DNA of 41,669 nt from Pseudomonadota bacterium (lineage in GTDB: Bacteria > Vulcanimicrobiota > Xenobia > RGZZ01), in assembly GCA_010028905.1 (NCBI GenBank), contig RGZZ01000003.1:1-41669 (forward strand). The letters are read 5' to 3'. The notes under the pieces are model-generated. The model worked only from the letters and a program-made list of their open reading frames with translations, was not told where the DNA came from and did not search any database. Below, in pieces: positions 5,810 through 35,406 of this stretch (position 1 is the stretch's first letter; each line of letters begins with the position of its first letter). Position numbers and translations under genes: made by a program.

Positions 5810-5830
5810 GGAAGGATGTTCAATAAACAA

Positions 5831-5860
5831 CGTGGCCTCCCTCTCTCGAGGAAGGCCACG
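5831..5860 (-). terminator. Hairpin with T-rich flank, terminator or attenuator
   Basis: CGTGGCCT at 5831-5838 pairs with AGGCCACG at 5853-5860. The stem continues with one mismatch to an inner four-base-pair part and a four-base loop. Read on the minus strand, it is followed directly by TTGTTTATT, like an intrinsic terminator. It ends the YqzL-like transcript but lies only about 22 bases ahead of the ATG of the primase-helicase homologue, so it could also act as an attenuator for that gene. Confidence 0.6.
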
Positions 5861-5969
5861 TGGGGCGCGCCGCTACTGTGGGCGCGCGACTCCTTCTGGA
5901 CGACATCACGGCCCGCCAGCGGCAGCTGCAACGAGATGCGTCGGTTTCAGGTCAGGGCGTCGAAGGAGA

Positions 5970-6059
5970 TCAGTCGCAGTTCAGCTTCTTGTACATGATG
6001 TAGTGCGAGATGGAGCCAGTTGATTTGAACAGATCCCAGAAGATTTCCGGCGTCAACAA
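5970..6059 (-). CDS. YqzL-like microprotein, 29 residues
   Basis: A very short reading frame starting at TTG (6057-6059), preceded at good spacing by AAAGGGG. The protein begins MLTPEIFWDLFKSTGSIS and continues HYIMYKKLNCD. This follows the YqzL pattern of Gram-positive bacteria: an F-W-x-x-F-x-x-T-G-S-I core, then Y-x-x-Y-K. An in-frame ATG at 6081-6083 would give 37 residues, but it would leave a leader of only about 8 bases and has no ribosome-binding site. A well-formed promoter lies just upstream and a hairpin downstream, which supports a real gene. YqzL function is not established; in Firmicutes it is often near recO, which is not seen here. Confidence 0.75.
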   Translation of the reverse strand: MLTPEIFWDLFKSTGSISHYIMYKKLNCD

Positions 6060-6097
6060 GGTACTACCCCTTTCGCGCGTCATTCTGAACCCACGCA

Positions 6098-6126
6098 AGT
6101 ATAACACAGCCCCCCTGGTTTGGCAA
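6098..6126 (-). promoter_or_regulatory. Sigma-70-type promoter for the YqzL-like gene
   Basis: On the minus strand TTGCCA (6121-6126) is followed after 17 bases by TATACT (6098-6103). Transcription would start near 6091, about 32 bases ahead of the TTG start codon and just upstream of the AAAGGGG ribosome-binding site. Confidence 0.7.
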
Positions 6127-6179
6127 CGAGCCGTTTCAGGTTTTTTTCAGGTTCTCCCTGGCCTGGAGGTGAGCGGACG

Positions 6180-6977
6180 ATGAAAGGCAGCGAATCACCG
6201 ATGATCACCAGCCGCCAGAATCCGCTGGTCAAGGAGATCGTGGAGGCGGGTCGCAGACGACCGTCGGGCCTGTTCGTTCTCGAAGGCCCGCATCTCGCTG
6301 ATGAGGCCCTGCGCGCCGACGTGCGCATCGTGCGGGTGCTGCTCGGACCGAACGCCGACCCTCACATTGCGGCGCGGCTTCGAGAGCGCGCTGAACGGGT
6401 CTTCGACGCCTCTGCCGAAGTCGTCGCGCACGCCGCCGACAGTCAGCATCCCCAGGGAATCGTCGCTCTCGCGGAAGAGCCCCCGCTCGCGCTCGAGCCC
6501 GATCGCGCCCGCGTGGGCCGGCTGCTGCTGCTCGATGAGGTGCGCGATCCGGGAAATCTGGGCACGATCATGCGAACCGCCTGGGCTTCCGGCGTTGCGG
6601 GCGTGATCACGGTGGGAAGCTGCGTCGATCCCTGGAACCCCAAGGCGGTGCGCGCATCCGCCGGAGCCTGCTTCCACGTGCCGGTGCTGCGCATCGCCGA
6701 TCGCGCCGAGCTGCCCCCCTGGCTCGAGACGCACGGACAGCGGGCGCTGCGGGTCGAGGCAAACGGCCGACGCTCGTGCTTTGAAGCCGACCTCTCGTCG
6801 CCCGTCACACTGGTGCTGGGCAGCGAAGCGCACGGGGTGCACCCTGAGACCGCGGCAGCCTGCGCCGACTCGCTGCACGTGCCGATGCGCGGAGGGTGCG
6901 AGTCGCTCAACCTGGCGGCGACGGCGGCCGTTCTCTGCTACCTGGCCCTCGATCGGGAGACGCGGCTCAGGTCTTGA
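6180..6977 (+). CDS. SpoU/TrmH-family RNA 2'-O-methyltransferase
   Basis: 265 residues from the ATG at 6180, which follows GGAGGT by nine bases; a longer TTG reading from 6120 has no such signal. The three SPOUT motifs are present: motif 1 DPGNLGTIMRTAWASG (asparagine and arginine of NxGxxxRxA), motif 2 LVLGSEAHGV, and motif 3 VPMRGGCESLNLAATAAV. The N-terminal 100 residues form the substrate-binding domain typical of 23S rRNA 2'-O-ribose methyltransferases (opening SRQNPLVKEI, then VLEGPHL). The family uses S-adenosylmethionine and a trefoil knot. The exact rRNA target cannot be read from sequence. Its 3' end overlaps the convergent S26-like gene by 11 bases. Confidence 0.93.
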   Translation: MKGSESPMITSRQNPLVKEIVEAGRRRPSGLFVLEGPHLADEALRADVRIVRVLLGPNADPHIAARLRERAERVFDASAEVVAHAADSQHPQGIVALAEEPPLALEPDRARVGRLLLLDEVRDPGNLGTIMRTAWASGVAGVITVGSCVDPWNPKAVRASAGACFHVPVLRIADRAELPPWLETHGQRALRVEANGRRSCFEADLSSPVTLVLGSEAHGVHPETAAACADSLHVPMRGGCESLNLAATAAVLCYLALDRETRLRS

Positions 6978-7584
6978 ACCTGCTGCCCTTCTTCTTGCTC
7001 TTTCGCACCAGCACCGGCGCCTCGATCTTGGTGACGTCGTCGCCCACCTCGAGGTTGTCCTCACGGCGCTTGTGAAGCGGCAGCATGAAGAGAACGAAGT
7101 CAACGAACTTCGACCAGACGGGGCGGGTGCCGTACGAGGTGAGCCAGTCGATGGGCCCGCGATTGAGACGCCACGCGCTGATCTTGCGACCATGACGCTC
7201 GACGTGGATGAGCTTGGCGAGAAGCTGTGAGGCCCGCAGCTGATCACGCTCGTTGTGATCGACATCGGAGCGGGTGATGAGGGTGGCCTTCCCCTCCACG
7301 AAGAGCTTGCGCACCACCCGACGCACCGCGGGCACACCGCTGTTGATGCGGTAGAGCACGAAATCGCCCTCGCGTGTCTTCACGTAGTTCGTCGACTTGA
7401 AGACCATGAGATCACCCGGCTGGATGAACGGCATCAAGGTGGTGTCGGTGACGCGAACGTTGAACGCATTGCCCGCCGACAGGGTGTCGATGATGCGCTG
7501 GATGGCGTCCGCCGCGCCCTGCATGGCGAGAAAGCTGCCACGGTGCAGGCTGCCAGGGGAGATGTCGAAGCCTTCTTCGCTCAC
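6967..7584 (-). CDS. S24/S26 peptidase-like protein with altered catalytic residues
   Basis: 205 residues from a GTG at 7584 with GGAGG eight bases upstream; longer readings run into the upstream transporter gene. The middle is built like a signal-peptidase/LexA-type fold: VTDTTLMPFIQPGDLMVFK (45-63) matches the VxGxSMxPxxxxGD box. The catalytic serine position is threonine (T49) and the preceding glycine is aspartate. The basic box reads VRRVVRKLF where signal peptidases have a lysine or HRV, and TRSDVDHNERD corresponds to the later TKGD box. There is no clear N-terminal membrane anchor. The tail is lysine-rich (RKSKKKGSRFK). It may be a protease with a threonine nucleophile, or an inactive relative. 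It is 25 bases downstream of the symporter gene. Confidence 0.7.
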   Translation of the reverse strand: MSEEGFDISPGSLHRGSFLAMQGAADAIQRIIDTLSAGNAFNVRVTDTTLMPFIQPGDLMVFKSTNYVKTREGDFVLYRINSGVPAVRRVVRKLFVEGKATLITRSDVDHNERDQLRASQLLAKLIHVERHGRKISAWRLNRGPIDWLTSYGTRPVWSKFVDFVLFMLPLHKRREDNLEVGDDVTKIEAPVLVRKSKKKGSRFKT

Positions 7585-7609
7585 GCAGACGCCCTCCAGA
7601 CCCACGAGC

Positions 7610-8929
7610 TCATGAGTGACCCACTGCTGCCGCAGCGTCGTCGGCGACCGCAGGCGGAGGCTGCGCACCCGTCGTGGGCTGCGCCTCCGTCGGATCGGCC
7701 AGCACGCCTTCCCAGCGCGCCACCACGGCGGTGGCGAGGCAGTTCCCGAGAACGTTCACCGCGGTTCGCGCCATGTCCATCACGGCATCGACACCGAGGA
7801 TGACGGCAACCCCTTCCACAGGCAGGTTGAAGGTGGCAAGGGTTCCCGCGAGGATGACCAGCGACGCCCGAGGCACCCCCGCCACCCCCTTGCTGGTGAG
7901 CATCAGGGTGAGCACCATTAGCATCTGCTGGCTCAAGGGCATGTCCACCCCCGCTGCCTGCGCCACGAACACCGATGCCAGGGACAGGTACAGCGTGGTG
8001 CCGTCGAGATTGAAGCTGTAGCCGGTGGGAATGACAAACGACACGATCTGACGGGGCACGCCGAACCGCTCCATGTTCTGCATGGCGCGAGGCAGCGCGG
8101 CTTCGCTGCTGGTCGTGGAGAATGCGATGGTCACTGGTTCGCGCACGGCCTCAAAGAACCGGCGCACGGGGATTCGCGCGATCGCCATCACCGTGCCGAG
8201 CACGAAGACGACGAAGAAGAACAGCGCCAGGTACAGCGTGCCGATGAGCTTGCCCAGATACCCCAGCACCTGCACGCCCTGCCCTCCGATGGTCGCCGCC
8301 ATGGCGGCCGCCACGCCGATGGGCGCGTACCGCATGATGAAGCCGGTGTACTTGAACATGACCTCGGCCACGCTCTCGCACAGCTCGATGACGGGCTTGC
8401 CACGGTCGCCCGCCGCCACCACCCCCATGCCGAACAGCACCGCGAAGACCACGATCTGGAGCACGTCGCCACGGGCCATGGCGTCAACCACGCTGGCGGG
8501 GAAGGTGTGAAGAAGGATGTCGGCGGCGCCGTGCATCTTCTGGGCATCGATCTTCTCCGCGCTTGCCGCGAGTGTCAGGTTGACGCCCGCGCCGGGCTGC
8601 ACGAGGTTCACCGCGGCCAGCCCGACCAGAAGCGCAAACGTGGTCACCACCTCGAAGTACACGAGCGCCTTGAGGCCCATGCGCCCCACGGCCTCGAGCG
8701 AGCCGACCCCCGCGATGCCCACCACGAGCGTTGCGAACACCAGCGGAGCGATGATCGACTTGATCATCTGCAGGAACAATGTGCCGAGGGGCTTGAGGCT
8801 CACCGCCAGATCCGGGCGCACCACGCCGAGGGCCACACCCAGGGCCAGTCCGATGAAGATCTGGGCCGTGAGCCCGATTCCCTTGGCGGGAGCGGGTGGG
8901 GCGGCGGAGGCCTCGGCATCGATGCGCAT
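7610..8929 (-). CDS. Dicarboxylate/amino acid:cation symporter (DAACS family)
   Basis: 439 residues from the ATG at 8929. The long open frame above it is out-of-family, alanine/arginine-rich and overlaps the next gene, so it is not coding. The protein is a multi-pass inner-membrane transporter of the GltP/DctA type: TSSSEAALPRAMQNME (serine-rich re-entrant loop), GYSFNLDGTTLYLSLASVF, SKGVAGVPRASLVILAG, and the substrate-site helix DAVMDMARTAVNVLGNCLA. These proteins import glutamate, aspartate or C4-dicarboxylates with Na+ or H+. The arginine of DMARTAVN fits acidic substrates, but I cannot separate amino-acid from dicarboxylate specificity. The S26-like gene follows closely on the same strand. 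Confidence 0.92.
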   Translation of the reverse strand: MRIDAEASAAPPAPAKGIGLTAQIFIGLALGVALGVVRPDLAVSLKPLGTLFLQMIKSIIAPLVFATLVVGIAGVGSLEAVGRMGLKALVYFEVVTTFALLVGLAAVNLVQPGAGVNLTLAASAEKIDAQKMHGAADILLHTFPASVVDAMARGDVLQIVVFAVLFGMGVVAAGDRGKPVIELCESVAEVMFKYTGFIMRYAPIGVAAAMAATIGGQGVQVLGYLGKLIGTLYLALFFFVVFVLGTVMAIARIPVRRFFEAVREPVTIAFSTTSSEAALPRAMQNMERFGVPRQIVSFVIPTGYSFNLDGTTLYLSLASVFVAQAAGVDMPLSQQMLMVLTLMLTSKGVAGVPRASLVILAGTLATFNLPVEGVAVILGVDAVMDMARTAVNVLGNCLATAVVARWEGVLADPTEAQPTTGAQPPPAVADDAAAAVGHS

Positions 8930-9039
8930 GCCGTGAGGTTCGTCAGGAATGGCGTGAACGTCCTTCCGCGGCAGCGCACCGGACTGCACAGCAGACTCGA
9001 GCCTGCGGCAGCGCCCCCACCTGACGCAGACGGCTCGCG

Positions 9040-9975
9040 TCAGTGCGCGGGCAGGGGCCTGAGAAGACGGTCGAGCATCACCGCCAGCCGCACGCCGCCG
9101 ACCAGCATCCTCCGCATGGCAATGCTCTCCGCCTGCGCCACATAGTGCGCCGAGAGCGGCTCGACCTCCCGGGGCAGGTGCTTCGGGTCGGTGATGACAG
9201 CCCCCGGCACGGCCCCCTCGCAGTAGACCCGCGTGACCGCAAGCTTCTTCCCCTCCGTGATCCACACGGTCGAATCGCCACCGCAGAACTTCGGGCGCCC
9301 CCCAACCTCCAGTGCGCGCGCACGCGCCGGCACGTCGGTGGACGCATGGACCACGAGCCCGTCCCAGAGCGCGTGCAGGTTGATGACACGACCCTCGGGC
9401 CGACAGACCGCCCAGAGGTTCCCCCCCTGATCGCCTCCGGGCAGCGCGCGGCTCACGCGCTCGACGCAGTGCAAGGGCTGATGCAGATCGCCGACGAGGT
9501 GCAAAATCCAACAGATCGCCTCAGCGCGCTCGCGGCGGGTCGCCCCGGGCCGGCGAAGCGTCGCTTCGCAGCACGCAAGGGCCGTGACGGCGTTGGGGGT
9601 GGGCGGTTCGGTCACACGGGTGCCATCGAACGAGATGCGCTGGTCGATGTAATGCCAGTCAGAGTGGACCTGATCCGGCTCGACACGAAAGGGATTGTCG
9701 CTGCTCCTGCGCTTGATGTCGTCTGGCCAGACCGCCGCCCGCCCCACCACGTAGGCACGCCAATCGGCGACAGCGGCAGCAACAGCCTCCTTCTCCCAGA
9801 CGGGAAAGGACGGGTGCGCGCGCAGGATGATGAAGAGACGGGAGCGCGTCTCCTCGTCGAGACGGTTCCACGCGAGGTGCGCCACCAGCTCGTGACCGGG
9901 CCGGCTCCACGCGTGACAGAGCCCCGCGAGCTGCAGCCACACCAGTGCGCACATCACGACCCGTCTCGATCTCAT
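9040..9975 (-). CDS. Secreted S1/P1-type nuclease
   Basis: 311 residues from the ATG at 9975, with GGGGAGG five bases upstream. The N-terminus is a short signal peptide (VVMCALVWLQLAGLCHA) and cleavage would expose tryptophan. In this family the mature N-terminal tryptophan is itself a zinc ligand, so the cleavage site fits. Other metal ligands follow in order: GHELVAHLAW, WPDDIK, HSDWHYID, HLVGDLHQPLHCV, GGDQGGNLW and NLHALWDG. These trinuclear-zinc enzymes degrade single-stranded DNA and RNA and remove 3' phosphates, so it may scavenge phosphate or nucleotides outside the cytoplasm. It is divergent from the DUF2231 fusion gene across 245 bases with no clear control site. Confidence 0.93.
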   Translation of the reverse strand: MRSRRVVMCALVWLQLAGLCHAWSRPGHELVAHLAWNRLDEETRSRLFIILRAHPSFPVWEKEAVAAAVADWRAYVVGRAAVWPDDIKRRSSDNPFRVEPDQVHSDWHYIDQRISFDGTRVTEPPTPNAVTALACCEATLRRPGATRRERAEAICWILHLVGDLHQPLHCVERVSRALPGGDQGGNLWAVCRPEGRVINLHALWDGLVVHASTDVPARARALEVGGRPKFCGGDSTVWITEGKKLAVTRVYCEGAVPGAVITDPKHLPREVEPLSAHYVAQAESIAMRRMLVGGVRLAVMLDRLLRPLPAH

Positions 9976-10220
9976 GACAGCCTCCCCGATCTCGCCTCCG
10001 CGCCGAGCCCCCCGCGTCAGCCGCGCGTGCCCGGCGCAGGGAAGCGTTCCGCTCCGGCGGGCCACGATTCCTTCGCGGATGCGCCACCGCCCTCCGCCGT
10101 GCCGATGTCGCGGCCATCCGGAACGCTGTTCTGGCAGGCGTTGCCCTCCCCGACTGCGAACCCGCGCCTGCCCCTGGCTTGATAGCGAGGGCCCAAGACC
10201 CGACAAGGAACGTCATTCAC

Positions 10221-12482
10221 GTGGAGCTCGCCAGACTGCTCGGCGGAGCGCACCCGCTCCTGGTTCACTTCCCCATCGCACTTCTCCCCATGGCCACCCT
10301 CATCGACCTCTTGGGCTGGTGGCGTCGCAGCGAACGCCTGGCCTGGTGTGGCTACTGGCTCACCTTGCTGGGCACGGTCGGAGGCGTCTGCACCTTCGTG
10401 TGCGGCATTCTCGCCGAGCTCTTCGCGGCGCGCAGCGGCGTGCCGCAGCACATGATCGAGGTGCATGAGTGGCTGGCGACCTTCGCCGTGTGGACCTTCA
10501 TCGCCGTGGCCGTGGCGCGCATCCTGATGGGGGTCACGCTCCACCGGCGGAGCGCTCCGATCTACCTGCTGGCTGCCATCGCGGGCTGCGCGCTGCTCGT
10601 GATGGCCGCGCATCGCGGGGGGCAGGTGACCTACGCCTACGGTGCCAACGTGACCGGCGTGCAGCTGCAGCGGCTGCCGAGCGACGAAGACCTTGCGGTG
10701 CTGGCCCAGCATCAACGCGAAGACACGCTGCAGTACTCCAACCAGATGCACTGGATCTTCGGCGGCATCGTCCTGGCGCTCGCCGCGAGCGTTCTGCTCG
10801 AGCGCCTGCCGCGAGGACGGGTGCGCGAGCTGCGACGGATCATGCCGCTCGTGTTCGTGGGCGGCGGCGTCTACCTGGCCATCTTCAGCGACTGGGACAG
10901 CTGGCCCATCTCGACGCTTCGCCCCCTCACCGACCCCGAGGTGCTGCTGCACAAGTTCATCGCCTTGCTGCTGGTTGCCATGGGCGTGCTGTCGTGGCGC
11001 AAGCCGCCCCAGGCCGACACCTCGGCATCGACCTGGCAGAACCGCGTCATCGCCGTCATGTCGGCCATCGGTGGCGGCCTGCTCTTCACCCACGTGCACA
11101 CCAACGCGCCCTACACGAACGTGGCCGTGGGCGTCTACCTCAATCACAGCGCCCTCGGACTGGCCGCCTTCGGCGTCGGAGCCGCAGTGCTCCTGGCCGA
11201 CGCCTTCCCCCAGTCGAAGCGCATCGCGTGGCTCTTCCCGCTCTTCCTCGCCATCGAGGGCGCGCTGCTGCTCACCTACAACGAAGATCTGCCATGGTTC
11301 GCAGGCTACCACCGGATCTCGAACCAGCCAACGCGCGGCGGCGTGCTCGCCCACCTCGAGAAGGGTCGTGCTGAGCTGACCTTCGACCGCAACAAGGGGG
11401 TGCTCGATCTGTACCTGCTCGGCGCCCACGACGCACAGCCCCTCGAGCGGTCGGAGCCGACGCTCGACGGCGTCATCGAAGCCCGCCAGCGGGCCTTCCC
11501 CATTGCGTTCACGAGCGTGGAGAGCGGGCACTACCAACTGGCCCTCGACTGGCTGCGCGCCGTTCCCGTGTTCAACGTGCGCCTGGGCGCGCCGCTCGAC
11601 ACCTCGTTCGATCCCATCGTCACCGCGCCGCTGCTGCCCCCCCTCGAAGGCGCGGAGGTGGTCTACGCCTGCGCGATGTGCCCGGATGTGCGATCGTCGA
11701 TTCCGGGCACCTGCAGCATGTGCGGCATGACGCTCGAGGCGCTGCCGAAGCCCGAGATCACGGCCCCCGCCGTGCCGCCCCACGACCCGGAACTCGACTG
11801 CCGTCTCGCAGTGCAGCGCCCCCCGAAAGCGGGAGAGCCCGTCAAGATGACCCTGACGCCGGTCGGACCCGGCGGCGCCACGCTCACCAACCTGCACATC
11901 ATGCACGAGAAGTTGATGCACCTCATGATCGTGCGCGACGATCTGAATGCATTCGATCACGTGCACCCGATCCGCCAGTCGGACGGCTCGTTCGTCATCG
12001 AGCACACCTTTCCCAGCGGCGGGCAGTACGTTCTCTTCGCCGAGATCGCGCCCACGGGCCGGCACGCGCAGCGCTTCCGGATCCCGGTGACGGTGGACGG
12101 GCCGGCCGCGCCACCGCCCCCTCACCGACCGCAGACCGCCCTCCTCCAGCAAGGCGACTACACGTTCTCCCTCGACACGGGAACGCTCCCCGTGCGCGCG
12201 GGTGGCGAGACGCCCCTCACGGTGAGCATCTACAAGAACGGACGTCCCGTCGAGGACCTGACGACCTGGCTGGGCGCCGCAGGGCACTGCGTGATCATCT
12301 CTTCCGACACCCTCGACTACGTGCACGCCCACGCGCTGCAGCTGAGCGCGGTGCAGACCCCCGCCGGTCCCGACATCGCCTTCCACGCTCGACTGCCTCG
12401 CCCTGGACGGTACCGCATGTGGGCCCAGCTGGCCCATGGCGACAAGGTGCTCACCGCCGACTTCGATCTCGAGGCGCGCTGA
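10221..12482 (+). CDS. DUF2231 membrane protein fused to a heavy-metal-binding module
   Basis: 753 residues from a GTG at 10221 with AAGGA upstream; a TTG at 10179 is the alternative. Residues 1-150 form a DUF2231-like membrane domain (HPLLVHFPIALLPMATLIDL). More helices follow (about 190-350), including GGGLLFTHVHTNAP, a histidine pair facing the membrane as in copper-associated proteins. At about residue 482 comes YACAMCPDVRSSIPG, then TCSMCGM: the heavy-metal-binding motif usually written YxCPMHP..CPxCGM, but with cysteine in place of the histidine. The last 250 residues are beta-rich and contain HIMHEKLMHLMIVRDDL, DHVHPI and YVHAHAL, histidine/methionine-rich stretches seen in copper-handling proteins. 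I infer a membrane-anchored metal-binding protein, probably copper, with periplasmic C-terminus. Confidence 0.75.
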   Translation: MELARLLGGAHPLLVHFPIALLPMATLIDLLGWWRRSERLAWCGYWLTLLGTVGGVCTFVCGILAELFAARSGVPQHMIEVHEWLATFAVWTFIAVAVARILMGVTLHRRSAPIYLLAAIAGCALLVMAAHRGGQVTYAYGANVTGVQLQRLPSDEDLAVLAQHQREDTLQYSNQMHWIFGGIVLALAASVLLERLPRGRVRELRRIMPLVFVGGGVYLAIFSDWDSWPISTLRPLTDPEVLLHKFIALLLVAMGVLSWRKPPQADTSASTWQNRVIAVMSAIGGGLLFTHVHTNAPYTNVAVGVYLNHSALGLAAFGVGAAVLLADAFPQSKRIAWLFPLFLAIEGALLLTYNEDLPWFAGYHRISNQPTRGGVLAHLEKGRAELTFDRNKGVLDLYLLGAHDAQPLERSEPTLDGVIEARQRAFPIAFTSVESGHYQLALDWLRAVPVFNVRLGAPLDTSFDPIVTAPLLPPLEGAEVVYACAMCPDVRSSIPGTCSMCGMTLEALPKPEITAPAVPPHDPELDCRLAVQRPPKAGEPVKMTLTPVGPGGATLTNLHIMHEKLMHLMIVRDDLNAFDHVHPIRQSDGSFVIEHTFPSGGQYVLFAEIAPTGRHAQRFRIPVTVDGPAAPPPPHRPQTALLQQGDYTFSLDTGTLPVRAGGETPLTVSIYKNGRPVEDLTTWLGAAGHCVIISSDTLDYVHAHALQLSAVQTPAGPDIAFHARLPRPGRYRMWAQLAHGDKVLTADFDLEAR

Positions 12483-27939: not shown

Positions 27940-29439
27940 TCAGCGAACGTTGAAGCGCGTCTGTCCCACGGTGACCACGTCGCCGCGATTGAGGAGCACA
28001 CGTCCTCCGATGCGATGACCGTTCACGTAGGTGCCGTTGGTGGAGGAGAGGTCTTCGAGCCACGCCTCACCCCGCTCCACCCTGACACTCGCATGGCGAC
28101 GCGAAGCGGCGCTGTCGTGCGAGATCACGATGTCTCCCTCTTCGCGACCGATGACCGTCTCTCCCGACTCAAGCGGGTGAGAGACGGTCGCATCGTCGGT
28201 CACCAGCATGAGGAGCGCGGCGGCGCTGGCGCCAGACGCCGCAGCTGTCGCGGGTGGCGCTGGGATGAGCGCCGTGGGGCGGGCCGCCGGCTCGACCGGC
28301 GCCGTGCTGCTGGTGCTGGGAACAGCCTGGGCGGCGGAGAGCGGCGAGGGCTCGACAGGCACTGCTTCGGGCAAAGGCTCGGGCTCACGAGCCGAGGGAG
28401 AGGACACCGGAAACTCCGGCACGGCCACCACGGGAATCGACCCGGCTGCCCGCGAGCCAGGCGCCGGGATGGCGGAGGGGCGCCGTGCACCCGCCTCGAT
28501 GCCGAGGCGCTCGAGAAGATCGAGAAAGCCCGGATAGCGCGAGGTGATGCGATTGAACTCATCTTCCGCCTCGGTGTTGCGTCCGCGATTCGCAAGCGCG
28601 GTGCCATACCCGTAGCGCGCATCGAGCATCAGCTGGGGGTCGAAATCGGTGCGCGTGAGGATCTTCTTGAAGATCTCGAGCGCCGTCTCCGCATCGTGGG
28701 TCTCGACACAGGCCCGCGCGAGAAGGATGAGGTTGCAGAGCGAGATGTTGTCGTCCGGAAGGGTGTCCTTGAGCAGGGCGATGACGTCGCGCCATCGTCC
28801 GGCCTCGATGTAGTGGAGCGAGAGGAAGAACCCCACGACCGGATTGTCTGGAAGCACCCCGAGAAGCTGGTCGAGCACCGTGCCCGCCTCCTCGTCATCA
28901 CGAAGGCCGCGGTGCGCCAGCGATAGCAGGATGCTCACTCCGAGCAGATCGGGATAGAAGGCGAACGACGAGTTCTCCGTGAGGCACAGCGTCAGGCGAA
29001 GCGACGGCACGTACTTGCGTATCTTTGTGCCGAGACGTGCCTGGCAGAGCAGCACCTTCTTGAAGCTGTGCACGGCGCTCTCGTACGCTTCGAGCTCGAG
29101 CGAGATCGCGCCGTGCATGAAATAGGCGTCGGCGAACTGCGCGTCTTTGGTGAATGCGTCGCTGAAGCGCTCGAGCGCGTCGCGCAGCGCCCCTCTGAGC
29201 AGGGCTTCATAGCCGGAGACGAACGAGCGCTCCGCTGCCGGCACCGCGATGTTCTTGAGCACATTGGAGAAGAAGCGGCGAGGCTGCTGCACCTCGAGCA
29301 GCTCGATGACCGGTCGCATCTGCCCGAAGACCGGATGCAGATGCCGCTGATGAAAGACGCCCGTCTCCCCGACCTGTCCCCGCGCATCCTTGGAAGGCAC
29401 GAGGGCGCGTGACACCTCGCCCACGCCACGAGCCGCCAT
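27940..29439 (-). CDS. TPR-like protein with C-terminal FHA domain
   Basis: 499 residues from the ATG at 29439, which has no ribosome-binding site. The frame stays open to just after a stop at about 29520, and a CTG at 29494-29496 lies eight bases after GAGGAGG. That start would add 19 residues (reading LGKEEIFDTLKDGVSLAGR) and is attractive. Residues 70-320 are helical pairs resembling TPRs (SGYEALLRGALRDALERFSD; FADAYFMHGAISLELEAYES). A proline/alanine-rich linker follows, then an FHA domain (last 90 residues) with IGREEGDIVISHD, SRRHASV and SSTNGTYVNG, the phosphothreonine-binding residues. No membrane segment. It should read phosphorylation by the nearby kinase. Confidence 0.88.
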   Translation of the reverse strand: MAARGVGEVSRALVPSKDARGQVGETGVFHQRHLHPVFGQMRPVIELLEVQQPRRFFSNVLKNIAVPAAERSFVSGYEALLRGALRDALERFSDAFTKDAQFADAYFMHGAISLELEAYESAVHSFKKVLLCQARLGTKIRKYVPSLRLTLCLTENSSFAFYPDLLGVSILLSLAHRGLRDDEEAGTVLDQLLGVLPDNPVVGFFLSLHYIEAGRWRDVIALLKDTLPDDNISLCNLILLARACVETHDAETALEIFKKILTRTDFDPQLMLDARYGYGTALANRGRNTEAEDEFNRITSRYPGFLDLLERLGIEAGARRPSAIPAPGSRAAGSIPVVAVPEFPVSSPSAREPEPLPEAVPVEPSPLSAAQAVPSTSSTAPVEPAARPTALIPAPPATAAASGASAAALLMLVTDDATVSHPLESGETVIGREEGDIVISHDSAASRRHASVRVERGEAWLEDLSSTNGTYVNGHRIGGRVLLNRGDVVTVGQTRFNVR

Positions 29440-29555
29440 GCGGCCCGCGAGAGAGACGCCGTCTTTCAGGGTGTCGAAGATCTCTTCCTTGCCCAGAGCA
29501 ATCGCCTCCTCGATGGAAGCGCCTGGAGATGCGCTTCACGAACGGTTGCGCGCCC

Positions 29556-29585
29556 AGTATGCGCGAGACGTCAAGGCCCCGTCAA
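29556..29585 (-). promoter_or_regulatory. Probable promoter for the TPR-FHA gene
   Basis: On the minus strand TTGACG (29580-29585) is followed after 18 bases by CATACT (29556-29561). Transcription would start near 29549, about 50 bases ahead of the GAGGAGG-CTG start candidate. It would separate this gene from the four signalling genes upstream. The intervening 29586-29760 holds nothing I recognise. Confidence 0.5.
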
Positions 29586-29760
29586 CAAGGTGCGCGTGAA
29601 CGAGTTGTTGCAAAGTCCCGGTTCTCTCTTCGCGGTCGAGGCCGCGCAGTCCCGCGCGCACGAGCGCCTTCCCTCGGCTTCCCACGGAAGAGAAAGAGAG
29701 AGGCGGGCGCGCCACCTCCCTCTGTATACCCTCCGTCGACTGCGGCTCGAGGCGTCGACC

Positions 29761-30420
29761 TCAGGGCGTCGAGAAGACGAACTCGGTCTTTCCGAGGCGC
29801 AGGCGGTCGCCGTTTCGCAGGACGCGCTGCTCGCCTGCGGCCATCTTGACGTTGTTCAAGAAGCTGCCGTTCGACGAGCCGACGTCTTCGAAGATGTACT
29901 CGTCGTCATTGCGCAGGATCTGCGCGTGGCGACGAGACACGTACGATTCCGGGTCATCGTTGGTGAGATCGACGTCGGGCTCGATCTGATCGGCAGGGCT
30001 GCGACGTCCCATGGTCGTGATCTCCTTGTTGAGATCGAACTGCTTGGTGCCATCGGCCAGGGCGATGCGCGCGCAGCCGGACGCGGCTGCCACCGGAGCG
30101 GCCGGAGGCGCCACCGGGACGGGCGCGGACACGGCTGCCGGGGCCGGACTCGAGCCGAGATTGGCCCCGCAGTCGACGCAGTAGGCCTCGGTCGACGGGT
30201 TGTCGGCCCCACACGACGGGCACTGCACACTCGCGCCCGTCGCTGCCGGTGCGGAGGGCGGCGCGGCGGCCGGTGCGGGAGGCGGCGCCACCGGCGTCAC
30301 AGCGGGCGCCGGAGGTGGGGTGGACGAGACATCGTGGGGAACGACCACGAGCTTTGCGCCGCAGTCTTCGCAGTAGGCGGCTCCTTCGAGATTGTCTGAA
30401 CCGCAGACGTCGCACTTCAT
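29761..30420 (-). CDS. Double zinc-ribbon FHA protein
   Basis: 219 residues from the ATG at 30420, with AAAGGAG about 12 bases upstream. Two zinc ribbons stand at the N-terminus: MKCDVCGSDN...CEDCG (1-22) and CPSCGADNPS...CVDCG (67-86), four cysteines each. They are separated and followed by proline/alanine-rich linkers. The last 110 residues are an FHA domain with TMGRRSPADQIEPDVDL, YVSRRHAQIL and VGSSNGSFLNN, retaining the arginine, serine and asparagine that contact phosphothreonine. No membrane segment is seen. It lies 43 bases after the VWA gene and shares zinc-ribbon style with the phosphatase fusion upstream, suggesting one module. Confidence 0.92.
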   Translation of the reverse strand: MKCDVCGSDNLEGAAYCEDCGAKLVVVPHDVSSTPPPAPAVTPVAPPPAPAAAPPSAPAATGASVQCPSCGADNPSTEAYCVDCGANLGSSPAPAAVSAPVPVAPPAAPVAAASGCARIALADGTKQFDLNKEITTMGRRSPADQIEPDVDLTNDDPESYVSRRHAQILRNDDEYIFEDVGSSNGSFLNNVKMAAGEQRVLRNGDRLRLGKTEFVFSTP

Positions 30421-30463
30421 ACCAGAGACGGGCTCCTTTCGAATTCGGGACGGAGTGATTTTT

Positions 30464-31747
30464 TCAGGAGGTCGGTGGCAGGGGCACCTGGTCGAGCAGC
30501 TGGGTGAGCTTTCGCGTGCCGTACTGCAGCTTCTTGGTGCCCGCCGACGACGCGGCCGCACCGGTCTCGATGCGCTGGGCTTCTTGCAAGGCCTGCTGCG
30601 CAAGATCGCCCTGGCCGCGCTCGAGAAGCGTGGTGGCCGCGGAGCGGAGCAGCTGCGTCGCCTTGGCCCGATCGCCCGCCTGGGCCAGCTCGAGCGCTCG
30701 GGTCTGCTGGCGGAACACCGAGACGAGATCGACGACGTTCATGACCTGAGGCGTGACCACCGACGCCAGCGCCGGGTCAGGGGTGTAGCCCACCAGCACG
30801 TCACGGCTGACCGACGCATCACGCACCTGAAGAGAGGGCAGATCGTAGGTGGCTTCGACCTGGGCCACACGATATGTGCCCGCCTGTCGAGAGGGCAGCT
30901 CGAGCTCGAACAAGGTCGACTGTACCTCGTTCGACTGCAGATCGGCGAGCTGGACCGTGGCTTCGCGATCGACCATCTGCAGCTGACCGAGGTCATTGAT
31001 GAGCGGCTTCACCTTGAAGGCCCGTCGCACACCGATGTCCTTGGCGAGCTTGAGCTTGATGCGCGGGTTGCGCACCACCACCGACTGCACCCCCTGCAGC
31101 TCGTCAGCGAAGATCTGGGGGATGTCACGCGGATCGTCGATGTAGTACGACTTCCCCCGACACCCGTTGGCGATGCCGAGGAGCAGCTCTTCATTGAAGT
31201 CATCACCCACGCCGATGGTGGACACCGAGATGCCATCGCGGTTGGCCTCGAGACAGCGCTCGTGGCACTTCTTCTCGGCCTGGGTGAGACCATCGGTGAG
31301 GATGACCACATGGTTCATGCGATCTGGCGAGAACGCGTTGCGCACCTGGCTCACCGCGGCCTCGATGCCCTTGAGCATCTCGGTGCCGCTGCCCACATCG
31401 ACCTGGTCGATGTTCTTGATCATGCGCTTGGCCTGCTCCTTGTCGTAGAGCTGACCGCTGGGAATCAGGACGCGAGCCTTGTCGGCGAACGCAATGATGG
31501 AACAGAGATCGGTGGGGCGCAGCTGATCGATGACGAACTGCACGGCATTCTTGACGTACTCGAGCTTGCGCGCCGCGTACATCGAACCGCTCTTGTCGAG
31601 AACGATGGCCAGGTTGAGGGCCGCGGGACCCGCCCCCACAGCCTCTCCTGGCCTCACCTCTGCAAGCAGGTAGAGCAGCTTCCGCTCGCTCGTCACCAGG
31701 ACATTCTGGTAGCTCAACAGCACGTCGAGCATCACTTCTTGTGCCAT
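30464..31747 (-). CDS. VWA-domain protein
   Basis: 427 residues. A von Willebrand factor A domain covers roughly residues 40-220 and has a complete metal-ion-dependent adhesion site: DKSGSM (51-56), T122 in GSGTEM, and D152 in LTDGLT. A beta-rich region and a helical C-terminus (LELAQAGDRAKATQLLRSAA, TPR-like) follow. No signal peptide or membrane helix, so it is probably cytosolic. Genes encoding a VWA protein, a PP2C phosphatase and a kinase together are known as the TerY-P triad in tellurite-resistance-type stress loci; this neighbourhood is similar in content, with FHA proteins added. The VWA protein is a likely adaptor or substrate. Confidence 0.93.
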   Translation of the reverse strand: MAQEVMLDVLLSYQNVLVTSERKLLYLLAEVRPGEAVGAGPAALNLAIVLDKSGSMYAARKLEYVKNAVQFVIDQLRPTDLCSIIAFADKARVLIPSGQLYDKEQAKRMIKNIDQVDVGSGTEMLKGIEAAVSQVRNAFSPDRMNHVVILTDGLTQAEKKCHERCLEANRDGISVSTIGVGDDFNEELLLGIANGCRGKSYYIDDPRDIPQIFADELQGVQSVVVRNPRIKLKLAKDIGVRRAFKVKPLINDLGQLQMVDREATVQLADLQSNEVQSTLFELELPSRQAGTYRVAQVEATYDLPSLQVRDASVSRDVLVGYTPDPALASVVTPQVMNVVDLVSVFRQQTRALELAQAGDRAKATQLLRSAATTLLERGQGDLAQQALQEAQRIETGAAASSAGTKKLQYGTRKLTQLLDQVPLPPTS

Positions 31748-31895
31748 GCGCGTTCCTCGCCTCTCCGTGTGCGGACCTCAACCCGCGCCGAACCTGCAGG
31801 CTCGGGAGGGATATCGCACTTCAATTGAATTGCGCAGGTTTCCTCCAACACCGCGTCACCGCCTGCCCTTCGCTCCCCTGCTCGCGCGCTGATGA

Positions 31896-33815
31896 TCAGG
31901 CGCTCGCGGGAAGGATGTGCACGATGATGGCCGTGGCGTTGTCGTCGGCGCCCCGACGCAGCGTCTCCTCGATGAGACGCTCGCAGGTCGCTTGAGGATC
32001 GTCGCCCTGCCGCATGAACCCGATGATCTCGTCCTCCGAGAAATATTCCCATACCCCGTCTGAGCAGAGGAGCAGGCGATCGCCCCGAGCCAGCTCCCGC
32101 GTGTAGAGGTCGACCTCGAGCTCCCCCTGGGTTCCCAGGGCGCGATAGAGATACGAGCGCTGAGGAGAGGTTCGGGCCTCCTCGCGGGTCAGCTGACCGA
32201 TGCGCACCAGCTTGCCCACGAGCGAGTGATCTTCGGTGACCTGATCGATCTGCTGCGATGCAGGGCGGTACAGATAGGCGCGGGTATCCCCCGCGTGCCC
32301 GAAGACGGCATGCGGCCAGTCGATCATCAGCGCCGTCAGGGTCGAGCCCATGCCGCGACGCGACTCGTCCTGGCGAGAGTAGTCGAACACGCAGCGGTTG
32401 GCCGTCTCGATGGCCTCGTGCACCAGCTCCTCGAGCCGTGGCACCGTCTCTGTGGGACGAAGGCGGCTCGTGTCGGTGCCGGTCTTCACGGGGATGCAGC
32501 TGGCGAGAACGTGGCTGGCCATCGATCGGATGGCCAGCGAAGATGCCTTGTCACCCTCAGCCTCGCCGCCCATGCCGTCGGCAACGACCACGAGGAGCGC
32601 CTGCGTCGGCACAGAGTGCTCCCACGCGGAGAAGCCCGTCACCAGGAGACTATCCTGGTTCACCGATCGCACGCAGCCGACGTGCGACTTCATGCCGATG
32701 ACACACGGGAGGAAGCCTGGCGCCCACGGCTGCTGCGGCGTCGAGGCCTCACCTGCCGAAGCGGGCTCGGAAGCCGGCGGCGCTGCCTCCGAGGGAGAGG
32801 GCGCCGGAGGGTCGGCTGGCGCAGGTGGCGCCTCACCCGCGGTGGTCGGAGCCGCGTCGCCAGCGGTGTCCTCAGCCCCGCCCAGCAGAACCTCTTCCAG
32901 GGCGTCAGCCATCTCGTCGGCCGAGGAGAAGCGGTTGCGAGCGTCCTTGCTGACGGCCTTCATCACAGCCGCCTCGAGACGAGGGGGAACGCCCTTCACG
33001 TGGGTTCGCAGAGGCGGGAAGAAGAAGAACTGCTCGCGGCTCACGGCAGCCGGGCTCTGACCGGAGAGCAGGAAGTAGAGGGTGGCCCCCACCCCGTACA
33101 CGTCGGATGCGACGCACGGCGAACCGCCCACACCGAAGGCCTCCGGCGCGGAATAGCCCTCGGTGACGCTGCACACCGCGGGGAGGTCGTCGATGCGAGC
33201 GAGGCGCTCATAGCCGTCGAGCAAGGCGAGCCCGCCATCGTCGATGAAGATGTGCGACGGGTGCACCCCGAGATGCAGAAAGCCTCGCCCGTGAAGCTCG
33301 GAGAGCGCCTTCAGCGTGGCGATGCCGATGGCAACGACGTCATCGTGGGGCAGCGGACCGCCATCCTGACGGTAGGGCTGAAGCGCGCACTGCGGGAGGG
33401 GGTCTCCCACCAGAAAGCCTCGCCCTTCGCGATAGAAGAAATCACTGACCGCCCACAGATGCGGGCACTCGCTGGCCTGCAGGGCACGCCAGGCTGTTGC
33501 CGCGCGAGACGGGTCTTCAGGGTGAGGCTGGCCAGGCGAAGCCTCATCGGCCTTCTCGAGGGGCGGCGCCTCCGCGTCTTCGAGGACGCGAGCCGCCTTG
33601 CCGTCACGCGCGCGAATGGCCTCGTAGACGTTGAACGCGCCGTCGACGCGCGCCGAAGCGACGATGTACCCTGTGCCGGGGATCTCGCCCAGGGGCAGGA
33701 GATCGTGACGCTGACGCTGCTCGAGAACGACGGGGGCCGCCGTCAGCAGTGCCCCGCAATCGGCACAGTAGGTCTCTTCACCGGGGTTTTCGAGCTCGCA
33801 CGATGGACACCTCAA
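31896..33815 (-). CDS. Zinc ribbon - pseudokinase - PP2C phosphatase fusion
   Basis: 639 residues from a TTG at 33815 (GGAG nine bases upstream), giving an MRCPSC start as in the neighbouring FHA protein; a GTG at 33854 is possible. Residues 1-22 form a four-cysteine ribbon. Residues 45-310 follow a kinase fold, but key residues are lost: the VAIK lysine is arginine (AARVL, 74-78), HRDLKPSN reads HLGVHPSH (181-188), and DFG reads DGY (200-202). SAPEAFG and the DVYGVG helix remain. After a proline/alanine linker, residues 370-639 are a PP2C phosphatase with NQD (386-388), VADGMGG (411-417), GDTRAYL, CSDGVWEYF and DDNAT, all metal ligands intact. I infer a phosphatase whose targeting or regulation comes from a dead kinase. 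Confidence 0.9.
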   Translation of the reverse strand: MRCPSCELENPGEETYCADCGALLTAAPVVLEQRQRHDLLPLGEIPGTGYIVASARVDGAFNVYEAIRARDGKAARVLEDAEAPPLEKADEASPGQPHPEDPSRAATAWRALQASECPHLWAVSDFFYREGRGFLVGDPLPQCALQPYRQDGGPLPHDDVVAIGIATLKALSELHGRGFLHLGVHPSHIFIDDGGLALLDGYERLARIDDLPAVCSVTEGYSAPEAFGVGGSPCVASDVYGVGATLYFLLSGQSPAAVSREQFFFFPPLRTHVKGVPPRLEAAVMKAVSKDARNRFSSADEMADALEEVLLGGAEDTAGDAAPTTAGEAPPAPADPPAPSPSEAAPPASEPASAGEASTPQQPWAPGFLPCVIGMKSHVGCVRSVNQDSLLVTGFSAWEHSVPTQALLVVVADGMGGEAEGDKASSLAIRSMASHVLASCIPVKTGTDTSRLRPTETVPRLEELVHEAIETANRCVFDYSRQDESRRGMGSTLTALMIDWPHAVFGHAGDTRAYLYRPASQQIDQVTEDHSLVGKLVRIGQLTREEARTSPQRSYLYRALGTQGELEVDLYTRELARGDRLLLCSDGVWEYFSEDEIIGFMRQGDDPQATCERLIEETLRRGADDNATAIIVHILPASA

Positions 33816-33945
33816 GAACCGTTGCTCCGTTCTGTCTGCCGCGCACAACCCCACCAGGTGAGGGCCCGCCGTGACGTACCTCGTGCAGGTGGGCTTCTCT
33901 GGTATTTCAGCGGAATCCTCCGCTCCCGTTGCGGCGGCGCGACGG

Positions 33946-35406
33946 TCAGTGCAGCGGCACCGTGAACAGGTTCATCCACGGGAACCAGCGCGACAGGGGA
34001 TGACCCCGAGCGAGAAGGAAGGCGATGAGCGCAAGGTTCAGCCCGCAGCAGCACGCCGCAGCCACGGCGAACACACGCAGCGCGATTCGCTCATCGCTCG
34101 GGCAGGCGTAGTAGAGCACCGCCAGCAGCAGAGCCGCCACAAACCCGAAGACGGGGATGAGCGAGGCCACGGCGAGGAGGGCGGCGAGTATGACGCCCAG
34201 CAGGCTGAGACGCGCGGGCTCGATGGACACGCACACAGGCAGGCGGACCTCCCCGGCGGGGCTGCGAAGGAAGACCTCGGTTCGATGTGTGCCCCCCTCG
34301 CGCAGCGAGGAGGTGTACACGGTGACCTCCACGGTCGCGTCCGCACGCTCGAGGAACCGAGGCTCGATGCGAACCATGCGCCGTTCCGGGCAGGACAGTG
34401 CACCACGCGCCCCTCCCGTCACGCGCACCTCGAGCCGGCGGGTCTCGCCCTGTCGCAGCGTGCCGAAGTCGAGAGCCGCGGGGGCGAACGCCAGCGCCAT
34501 CTTCTGGGTATGCACAGGGGCTTGAGGCTCCGGCGACGGGGGCATCGCTGGCCGTTGCGCGAGCGGAGGGGCGGATCGGCCGGCAACGCTGTCGAGCGCT
34601 TCCCGCAGAGCCGCCCCCATCTCGGCCATGTCGGAGAAGCGATCGGCCGGGTTCACCGAGACGGCACGAAGAACGACGGCGTCCACGGCGGGTGGCAGGC
34701 CGCCACAGATCGACGAGGGCGGGAGGAACACAAACATGTGGTCGGTGGGGGCGCGCGCGGTGAGCAGATAGTGCAGCGTGGCCCCGAGCCCATAGACGTC
34801 GACGCGGCCATCGCTCTGCCTTGCGCCGTACTGCTCGGGCGCTGCGTAGCCAGGCGTGCCCAGGGCCACGGTGTCCGCCGCCTTCTCGGCGGAGTGGAAG
34901 CGAGCGATGCCGAAGTCGATGAGCTTGATGGCGCCATCGGTGGTGAGCATGACATTCGAGGGCTTCATGTCACGAAAGATGACCGCAGGGGAGCGGCCGT
35001 GCAGATAGACGAGCGCCTCTGCGAGCTCGACGCACCACTGCAGCGCTCGGGAGGGGTCGACCGGGCCCGACTGCTCGACCCGTCGCTCGAGGGTCTCCCC
35101 TTCGAGCAGCTCCATGACGAGATAGCGACGCCCCCCCTCGATGAAGTAGTCGCACACACGGGGAAGCGTGCGATGGCTGAGCGCTGCGAGCATGATCGCT
35201 TCCTGCTCGAACAGCCGCCCCGCCTGCTCGAGGTCGTCGCCATCGAGATGATCGACCCCCATCTCCTTCACCGCCCACACCGCGGTGGCTAGACGTCGAT
35301 CGCGTGCTCGATAGACGGCACTCATGCCCCCTCGCCCCAGCAGCGAGACGATCTCGTAGCGCTCGGCGAGCACGGTTCCCGGGGGCAGCAGATCCGAGTC
35401 TGACAT
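33946..35406 (-). CDS. Ser/Thr protein kinase with Ig-like domain and C-terminal membrane helices
   Basis: 486 residues from the ATG at 35406 (a GTG at 35415 is possible; neither has a clear ribosome site). A complete kinase domain fills about residues 15-290: LGRGGMSAVYRA, AVKEMG (ATP lysine), FRDMKPSNVML with phenylalanine for the usual histidine, IDFGIAR, and GTPGYAAPEQYG. An Ig-like or ASH/PapD-like strand-rich part follows (LDFGTLRQGETRRLEVRV). The last 100 residues contain two to three hydrophobic helices (LLGVILAALLAVASLIPVFG; VFAVAAACCCGLNLALIAFL). This is reversed from PknB-type kinases, which sense with an outer domain; here the inner side holds kinase and Ig-like parts. It begins the signalling run. 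Confidence 0.93.
   Translation of the reverse strand: MSDSDLLPPGTVLAERYEIVSLLGRGGMSAVYRARDRRLATAVWAVKEMGVDHLDGDDLEQAGRLFEQEAIMLAALSHRTLPRVCDYFIEGGRRYLVMELLEGETLERRVEQSGPVDPSRALQWCVELAEALVYLHGRSPAVIFRDMKPSNVMLTTDGAIKLIDFGIARFHSAEKAADTVALGTPGYAAPEQYGARQSDGRVDVYGLGATLHYLLTARAPTDHMFVFLPPSSICGGLPPAVDAVVLRAVSVNPADRFSDMAEMGAALREALDSVAGRSAPPLAQRPAMPPSPEPQAPVHTQKMALAFAPAALDFGTLRQGETRRLEVRVTGGARGALSCPERRMVRIEPRFLERADATVEVTVYTSSLREGGTHRTEVFLRSPAGEVRLPVCVSIEPARLSLLGVILAALLAVASLIPVFGFVAALLLAVLYYACPSDERIALRVFAVAAACCCGLNLALIAFLLARGHPLSRWFPWMNLFTVPLH

What the first reader, a model, noticed from the sequence alone, without database searches (positions are those of the whole stretch)
27940..35406. Five-gene phospho-signalling module: kinase, pseudokinase-PP2C, VWA, and two FHA proteins
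The genes lie in one direction with short gaps. They contain a writer (kinase), eraser (PP2C), two readers (FHA) and a MIDAS-complete VWA protein, with zinc ribbons on two of them. The TerY-P triad (VWA, PP2C, kinase) is a known kind of system. Here it is enlarged by the FHA proteins, carries a fused pseudokinase, and the kinase has membrane helices at its C-terminus. No ter genes or type VI secretion genes are visible. This may be an undescribed variant with its own function.
Basis: partly seen in the sequence, partly recalled or inferred. Interest (0 to 1): 0.7.

Follow-up and report, generated by a model that had tools for sequence, protein, structure and literature searches.

The report
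Bacterial ArnA-ArnB-like phospho-switch operon

Summary
The five genes are real and were read correctly. Wherever contigs allow, their order is kept across the class (Eremiobacterota), and the VWA gene is single-copy in 18 of 18 class genomes. The proposed family is the weak part. No type VI sheath gene (0 of 18 genomes) and no terD (own genome; 14 of 18) was found, and the kinase lacks the C-terminal zinc ribbon that defines TerY-P. The VWA protein instead has the three-part ArnB architecture (Z 25.5 to ArnB, residues 3-419), and the next gene encodes a zinc-ribbon-FHA protein, as ArnA is. New evidence: the VWA C-terminal tail (AGTKKLxYGTRKLTQ) is its most conserved stretch (88% identity to Nitrospirota homologues; the rest 34%) and carries tandem T-x-x-L motifs, the spacing FHA domains prefer. 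All 18 sampled VWA proteins beside an FHA gene, from four or five phyla, have at least three T-x-x-[LIM] in the last 60 residues; 11 without one have none or one. Best reading: the kinase phosphorylates the tail, zinc-ribbon-FHA (and perhaps TPR-FHA) binds it, and the ZnR-pseudokinase-PP2C removes the mark. Phosphorylation and binding are inferred. The downstream output is unknown. New variant of a known kind.

The parts
33946..35406 (-). Writer: Ser/Thr kinase, 486 aa; kinase domain ~15-275, linker 278-302 (T300-Q-K-M), beta-sandwich ~303-395, C-terminal membrane helices ~402-467
31896..33815 (-). Eraser: zinc ribbon + pseudokinase + PP2C, 639 aa (TTG start; GTG 33854 possible)
30464..31747 (-). 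ArnB-like scaffold: VWA domain (complete MIDAS) set in a beta-sandwich, then helices, 427 aa; single copy in 18/18 class genomes
30500..30544 (-). Codons 402-416 of the VWA gene: invariant tail AGTKKLQYGTRKLTQ with tandem T-x-x-L (T404 at 30536-30538, T411 at 30515-30517); proposed FHA docking site
29761..30420 (-). ArnA-like reader: two CxxC-x10-CxxC zinc ribbons + FHA, 219 aa
29695..29723 (-). Terminator-like hairpin after the zinc-ribbon-FHA gene (consensus match only)
29556..29585 (-). Promoter-like match TTGACG-18-CATACT before the TPR-FHA gene (consensus match only; 0.6 expected by chance)
27940..29502 (-). Second reader: TPR repeats + C-terminal FHA, up to 520 aa (499 aa from ATG 29439)

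Best explanation
A phosphorylation switch built around an ArnA/ArnB-like pair. The membrane-anchored kinase phosphorylates threonines T404 and T411 (perhaps T415) in the invariant C-terminal tail of the VWA protein. The zinc-ribbon-FHA protein, loosely held by its zinc ribbons when the tail is unphosphorylated, then binds tightly through its FHA domain. The ZnR-pseudokinase-PP2C reverses the mark; its similar zinc ribbon may bring it to the same VWA surface. TPR-FHA is a second reader that passes the signal on. Shown here: the genes, domains, intact or lost catalytic residues, conserved order, ArnB-like fold, and tail conservation and motif spacing. Inferred: phosphorylation of the tail, FHA binding, zinc-ribbon docking, and the output, which remains unknown.
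For: (1) The predicted VWA model (pLDDT 80.7) aligns nearly end to end with ArnB 8s05_A (Z 25.5, 364 residues, model 3-419), with its paralogue 5a8j (Z 21.9) and with 4fx5 (Z 30.1). (2) ArnA is zinc finger + FHA and binds ArnB phosphothreonines in the C-terminal helices; kinase ArnC and phosphatase PP2A act on it (PMC6509490, PMC12852372). The adjacent gene here is zinc ribbon + FHA with the same C-x2-C-x10-C-x2-C spacing (sequence). (3) Tail 402-416 is 97% identical within Eremiobacterota and 88% against Nitrospirota and relatives, versus 67% and 34% for residues 1-401; it is the most conserved 13-residue window, above the MIDAS. (4) The tail profile hits only this protein, once in each of the same 23 genomes. 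(5) FHA ligands often use the +3 residue as a specificity determinant (PMC6733907); T404-K-K-L and T411-R-K-L fit, and ArnB phosphopeptides include T-T-R-R-I twice. (6) VWA proteins beside an FHA gene: 18 of 18 have at least 3 T-x-x-[LIM] in the last 60 residues, with different sequences in Deinococcus and cyanobacteria; 11 without an FHA gene have 0-1. (7) FHA phosphate-binding residues are conserved.
Against: No phosphorylation or binding data. The tail is modelled as a low-confidence helix (pLDDT 61-66), so its conservation could be structural. ArnB sites T353, T363 and T375 are not identical in sequence to T404/T411. By sequence the FHA domain is nearest to GarA/OdhI. The best structural match, 4fx5, has no known phospho-switch. 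The tail-FHA association ignores relatedness and partly compares different subfamilies. One homologue (L162) has a different tail and L153 lacks T404. TPR-FHA is absent or not found in some outlying families.
Confidence: 0.6

Rival explanations
1. The conserved tail is a structural or docking helix that holds a partner (zinc ribbon, pseudokinase or PP2C) without phosphorylation; the FHA domains read other targets, such as the kinase itself, as in GarA/OdhI systems.
For: The tail is modelled as a helix; the FHA domains are nearest GarA/OdhI by sequence; T-x-x-[LIM] also occurs in the kinase linker in 14 of 17 sequences (4.8 expected).
Against: T and +3 residue stay fixed while everything around diverges; Deinococcus and cyanobacterial tails differ in sequence but keep repeated T-x-x-[LIM]; VWA proteins of similar size without an FHA neighbour lack it.
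Confidence: 0.22
2. A TerY-P type stress or defence switch (VWA, PP2C, kinase) to which FHA genes were added.
For: Same three enzyme/VWA classes (PMC11090510; PMC7159879).
Against: No C-terminal zinc ribbon or OB-fold on the kinase; no PADLOC hit for the VWA; terD absent in the own genome and 14 of 18 class genomes; core single-copy gene, not island-like.
Confidence: 0.08
3. A type VI secretion threonine-phosphorylation pathway (PpkA-PppA-Fha).
For: Shares kinase, PP2C, FHA and VWA domains; weak TagH model match (49 of 120 bits).
Against: No TssC/VipB gene in any of 18 class genomes.
Confidence: 0.01
4. Co-transcribed housekeeping signalling genes with no joint complex.
For: Core, single-copy, vertically kept; module split in three genomes (G008, G026, G021).
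Against: Order kept in different contexts and in other phyla; matched reader and ligand motifs.
Confidence: 0.09

Closest known systems
ArnA-ArnB archaellum regulatory switch (Sulfolobus acidocaldarius; kinases ArnC/ArnD, phosphatase PP2A)
   Same: Zinc-finger-FHA protein encoded beside a VWA / beta-sandwich / helix-bundle protein; threonine-rich C-terminal region; kinase and phosphatase act on it.
   Different: Here a kinase and a PP2C (not PP2A) are encoded in the same cluster, the PP2C carries a zinc ribbon and a pseudokinase, the kinase is membrane-anchored, and a second TPR-FHA reader is added; bacterial host; the tail motif is near the very end; the output is unknown.
Catenulispora acidiphila VWA protein 4FX5 and YfbK-type VWA proteins
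   Same: Same three-part fold (4fx5: Z 30.1).
   Different: No described FHA partner or phospho-tail; neighbourhood of 4FX5 not examined here.
TerY-P triad
   Same: VWA, PP2C and Ser/Thr kinase genes together.
   Different: No zinc ribbon on the kinase, no ter genes in this genome; ArnB-type VWA with FHA readers.
Actinobacterial kinase-PP2C-vWA triads of GAP1-N2 GTPase systems (PMC7159879)
   Same: Zinc-ribbon/beta-domain/TM kinase with PP2C and vWA genes.
   Different: FHA readers are not described there; whether GAP1 or DO-GTPase genes occur here was not tested.
GarA/OdhI-PknB/PknG
   Same: Bacterial FHA domain reading a kinase-made phosphothreonine with a hydrophobic +3; closest FHA sequences in the PDB.
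   Different: There the FHA protein itself is the substrate; here a separate VWA protein carries the sites.
T6SS threonine phosphorylation pathway (PpkA, PppA, Fha)
   Same: Kinase, PP2C, FHA and a VWA domain.
   Different: No T6SS sheath genes in the class.

Membership tests
ArnA-ArnB switch | VWA domain + beta-sandwich + C-terminal helix bundle scaffold | tested here: met
   Predicted model vs 8s05_A Z 25.5 over residues 3-419
ArnA-ArnB switch | Partner with zinc finger + FHA encoded beside it | tested here: met
   Gene 29761-30420: two C-x2-C-x10-C-x2-C ribbons + FHA
ArnA-ArnB switch | Threonine sites in the C-terminal region of the scaffold | tested here: met
   T404, T411, T415 in the invariant tail; sequence motif only
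ArnA-ArnB switch | Kinase-dependent phosphorylation of those sites and FHA binding to them | not testable with these tools
   Needs purified proteins
ArnA-ArnB switch | Sequence orthology to ArnA and ArnB | tested here: inconclusive
   VWA profile hits 8s05_A at 5e-14 but 4cn8 and 4fx5 equally well; FHA nearest to GarA/OdhI
ArnA-ArnB switch | Control of archaellum expression | not testable with these tools
   Bacterial host; output unknown
TerY-P triad | Ser/Thr kinase with C-terminal zinc ribbon (or OB-fold) | tested here: not met
   Kinase C-terminus is a beta-sandwich + membrane helices, no zinc-ribbon hit
TerY-P triad | TerY-like VWA protein | tested here: inconclusive
   No PADLOC hit; vWA-TerF-like below its cut-off; no TerY sequence was compared directly (one search failed)
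TerY-P triad | Association with ter genes | tested here: not met
   No TerD in the own genome; 4 of 18 class genomes have it
T6SS threonine phosphorylation pathway | T6SS genes in the genome | tested here: not met
   TssC/VipB 0 of 18, control rings in E. coli
Pseudokinase-PP2C fusion | Kinase fold with catalytic Asp and DFG lost | tested here: met
   13 full-length homologues aligned

The most novel reading that the evidence does not exclude
A widespread bacterial counterpart of the archaeal ArnA-ArnB switch, not described as such in the papers searched: a VWA scaffold whose C-terminal tandem T-x-x-[LIM] tail is a dedicated FHA landing strip, paired with a zinc-ribbon-FHA reader and encoded with its own kinase and PP2C, found in Eremiobacterota, Nitrospirota, a deltaproteobacterial group, Deinococcus and cyanobacteria, and fixed as a single-copy core system in one class.
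Probability: 0.45. Interest if true: 0.75.

Novelty: new variant of a known kind. Interest (0 to 1): 0.62.

Why it matters
Many bacterial FHA proteins have no known ligand. Here reader, proposed ligand, writer and eraser lie together, and a 15-residue tail gives a concrete binding site that can be tested with a synthetic peptide. It would link bacterial signalling to the archaeal ArnAB switch and, through the shared fold, to the Sec23/24 core, and suggest that this phospho-switch occurs in both Bacteria and Archaea. It would also give a handle on a signalling system that every sampled genome of an uncultured bacterial class keeps.

Tried and rejected
TerY-P and type VI secretion were tested and set aside. 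PADLOC hits (PD-T4-6 and others) are generic kinase matches and were not taken as a sign of defence. A sixth gene (exported, Cu_amine_oxidN1-like) follows TPR-FHA in three families but not in the window, so it is not part of the core. T-x-x-[LIM] in the kinase linker is above shuffled expectation (14/17 against 4.8), but the test ignores relatedness and the window's own copy (TQKM) is weak, so it is kept as a lead only. L156 was first counted as having no FHA neighbour; a profile search found an FHA gene directly downstream and it was moved; with or without the move the difference stays (Fisher 3.5e-7 and 2.9e-8, relatedness ignored). L155 has an FHA-kinase gene 2.4 kb away and was left in the no-FHA group. 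For Nostoc ATCC 53789 the FHA gene would lie across the start of the record and was not seen, so it is counted with the FHA group on the strength of its PP2C and kinase neighbours only. No fold search was run on the kinase's beta-sandwich. Literature searches covered open-access papers only. In PMC12852372 (section 9 read in full, rest by term search) the bacterial cases seen are structural orthologues (4FX5, YfbK); FHA operons were not mentioned in what was read.

Full report
What is there. On the minus strand, downstream of rplJ-rplL and upstream of dprA and hslV, lie five genes: a Ser/Thr kinase (35406-33946), a zinc-ribbon-pseudokinase-PP2C (33815-31896), a VWA protein (31747-30464), a double-zinc-ribbon FHA protein (30420-29761) and a TPR-FHA protein (about 29502 or 29439-27940). 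Domain scores are far above chance. The kinase keeps all catalytic motifs. The second kinase-like domain has lost the HRD Asp and the DFG in all 13 full-length homologues aligned while its PP2C half keeps the metal-binding motifs. Gaps are 130, 148 and 43 bp, then 260-320 bp; the last holds a terminator-like hairpin and a promoter-like match, so in this genome TPR-FHA may be transcribed apart.

Distribution. The host is a member of the phylum Eremiobacterota (relatives' record titles: Candidatus Eremiobacterota, UBP9). The VWA gene is present once in each of 18 class genomes and in five further genomes of the phylum, and absent at this threshold from the other 126. Wherever contigs are long enough the order kinase-PP2C-VWA-ZnR-FHA-TPR-FHA is kept; TPR-FHA was not found in some families outside the class, and in G008, G026 and G021 the module lies in two pieces. 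Flanks differ: ribosomal genes only in the window's family, EF-P and panE in others. Nitrospirota (13 of 148 genomes) and a phylum with a deltaproteobacterial MAG (3 of 148) carry PP2C-VWA-FHA, often with a second VWA, FHA and kinase. Deinococcus and cyanobacterial plasmids carry VWA-kinase-FHA-PP2C or VWA-FHA-PP2C-kinase with only 23-29% identity in the VWA.

What it resembles. An AlphaFold2 model of the VWA protein (pLDDT 80.7) matches 4fx5 (Z 30.1) and, nearly end to end, ArnB in the ArnAB complex 8s05 (Z 25.5, 364 residues, model 3-419) and its paralogue 5a8j (Z 21.9). In Sulfolobus, ArnA (zinc finger + FHA) holds unphosphorylated ArnB loosely through its zinc finger; phosphorylation of threonines in ArnB's last helices by ArnC lets the FHA domain bind tightly, and PP2A counteracts (PMC6509490, PMC12852372). 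The next gene in the window encodes that partner type, with the same zinc-ribbon spacing. Resemblance of fold and architecture does not prove function, and sequence orthology was inconclusive.

The tail. Residues 402-416 of the VWA protein (AGTKKLQYGTRKLTQ) are the best conserved part: 97% identity within Eremiobacterota and 88% against Nitrospirota and relatives, where residues 1-401 show 67% and 34%; the top 13-residue window scores 0.90 against a mean of 0.36 (SD 0.14) and exceeds the MIDAS. Part of the Nitrospirota set was found with a tail pattern, but those found by whole-protein profile have it too, with one exception (L162) and one T404A (L153). A tail-only profile finds no other protein in 148 genomes. 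T404-K-K-L and T411-R-K-L have the T-x-x-hydrophobic spacing that FHA domains often require (PMC6733907), and the ArnB phosphopeptides read ...ETTRR-I...ETTRR-I. Deinococcus tails (KTISLGTAKTMRLGAKTQTL) and cyanobacterial tails (GTRKTVKMGSKGKTVKM) differ in sequence but repeat T-x-x-[LIM]. In a comparison of 29 VWA proteins, 18 beside an FHA gene have three to six such motifs in their last 60 residues and 11 without have none or one. This test does not correct for relatedness, and some controls belong to fused subfamilies; five controls of similar size and no fusion (L185, L192-L195) have none.

Mechanism proposed. Kinase phosphorylates the tail at the membrane; zinc-ribbon-FHA switches from loose to tight binding; PP2C, possibly recruited through its own zinc ribbon to the same surface, resets it; TPR-FHA reads the same or another mark and relays the signal. 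The pseudokinase may regulate or localise the phosphatase. All steps after 'kinase, PP2C and readers are intact and conserved together' are inference.

Novelty. No paper found in the open-access library describes this bacterial set as ArnAB-like; in PMC12852372 (section 9 read in full, rest by term search) only structural orthologues (4FX5, YfbK) were seen for bacteria, and PMC7159879 describes kinase-PP2C-vWA triads with GAP1-N2 GTPases. The search covered open-access papers only. I rate it a new variant of a known kind.

Noticed in passing
L186 (Deinococcus wulumuqiensis plasmid) 3095-10834: The VWA-kinase-FHA-PP2C set lies directly downstream of pprA and lexA, DNA-repair and damage-response genes. 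ArnA of Saccharolobus islandicus is reported as a DNA damage response repressor (title of PMC10470591), so the parallel may not be accidental.
   Followed up: no
L048 4238-5320, L056 15172-16302, L159 7637-8794 and others: In three families of the class the gene after TPR-FHA encodes an exported protein with a weak Cu_amine_oxidN1-like domain and a long charged linker; in the window dprA is there instead.
   Followed up: partly
L154 4283-6325 (-), L155 5031-7031 (+): VWA proteins fused to a C-terminal Sir2 domain, next to kinase genes, in G033.
   Followed up: partly
L146 4887-7331 (+): Nitrospirota operons carry a second protein (815 aa in L146) with two FHA domains, a VWA domain and a C-terminal zinc ribbon between the ZnR-FHA gene and the kinase.
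   Followed up: partly
window 27940-29502, N-terminus of TPR-FHA: A conserved [ETDSQ][TS]G[LV][YF] motif near the N-terminus resembles the GarA/OdhI phospho-motif, but T is replaced by S in several relatives (resemblance from memory).
   Followed up: no
L040 9079-16172: In G021 a PP2C gene, an FHA gene, dprA and hslV stand in the same order as in the window while the VWA gene is elsewhere.
   Followed up: partly
L162 1363-2793: A VWA homologue whose tail lacks GTKKL/GTRKL but has KTQTL, TTLL and KTQML repeats beside a ZnR-FHA gene.
   Followed up: partly
G004, G005, G006, G015: Four genomes of one family (the matching records are titled as rumen assemblies) carry many TerD-family genes (4 to 17 matches each) absent from the rest of the class.
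   Followed up: no
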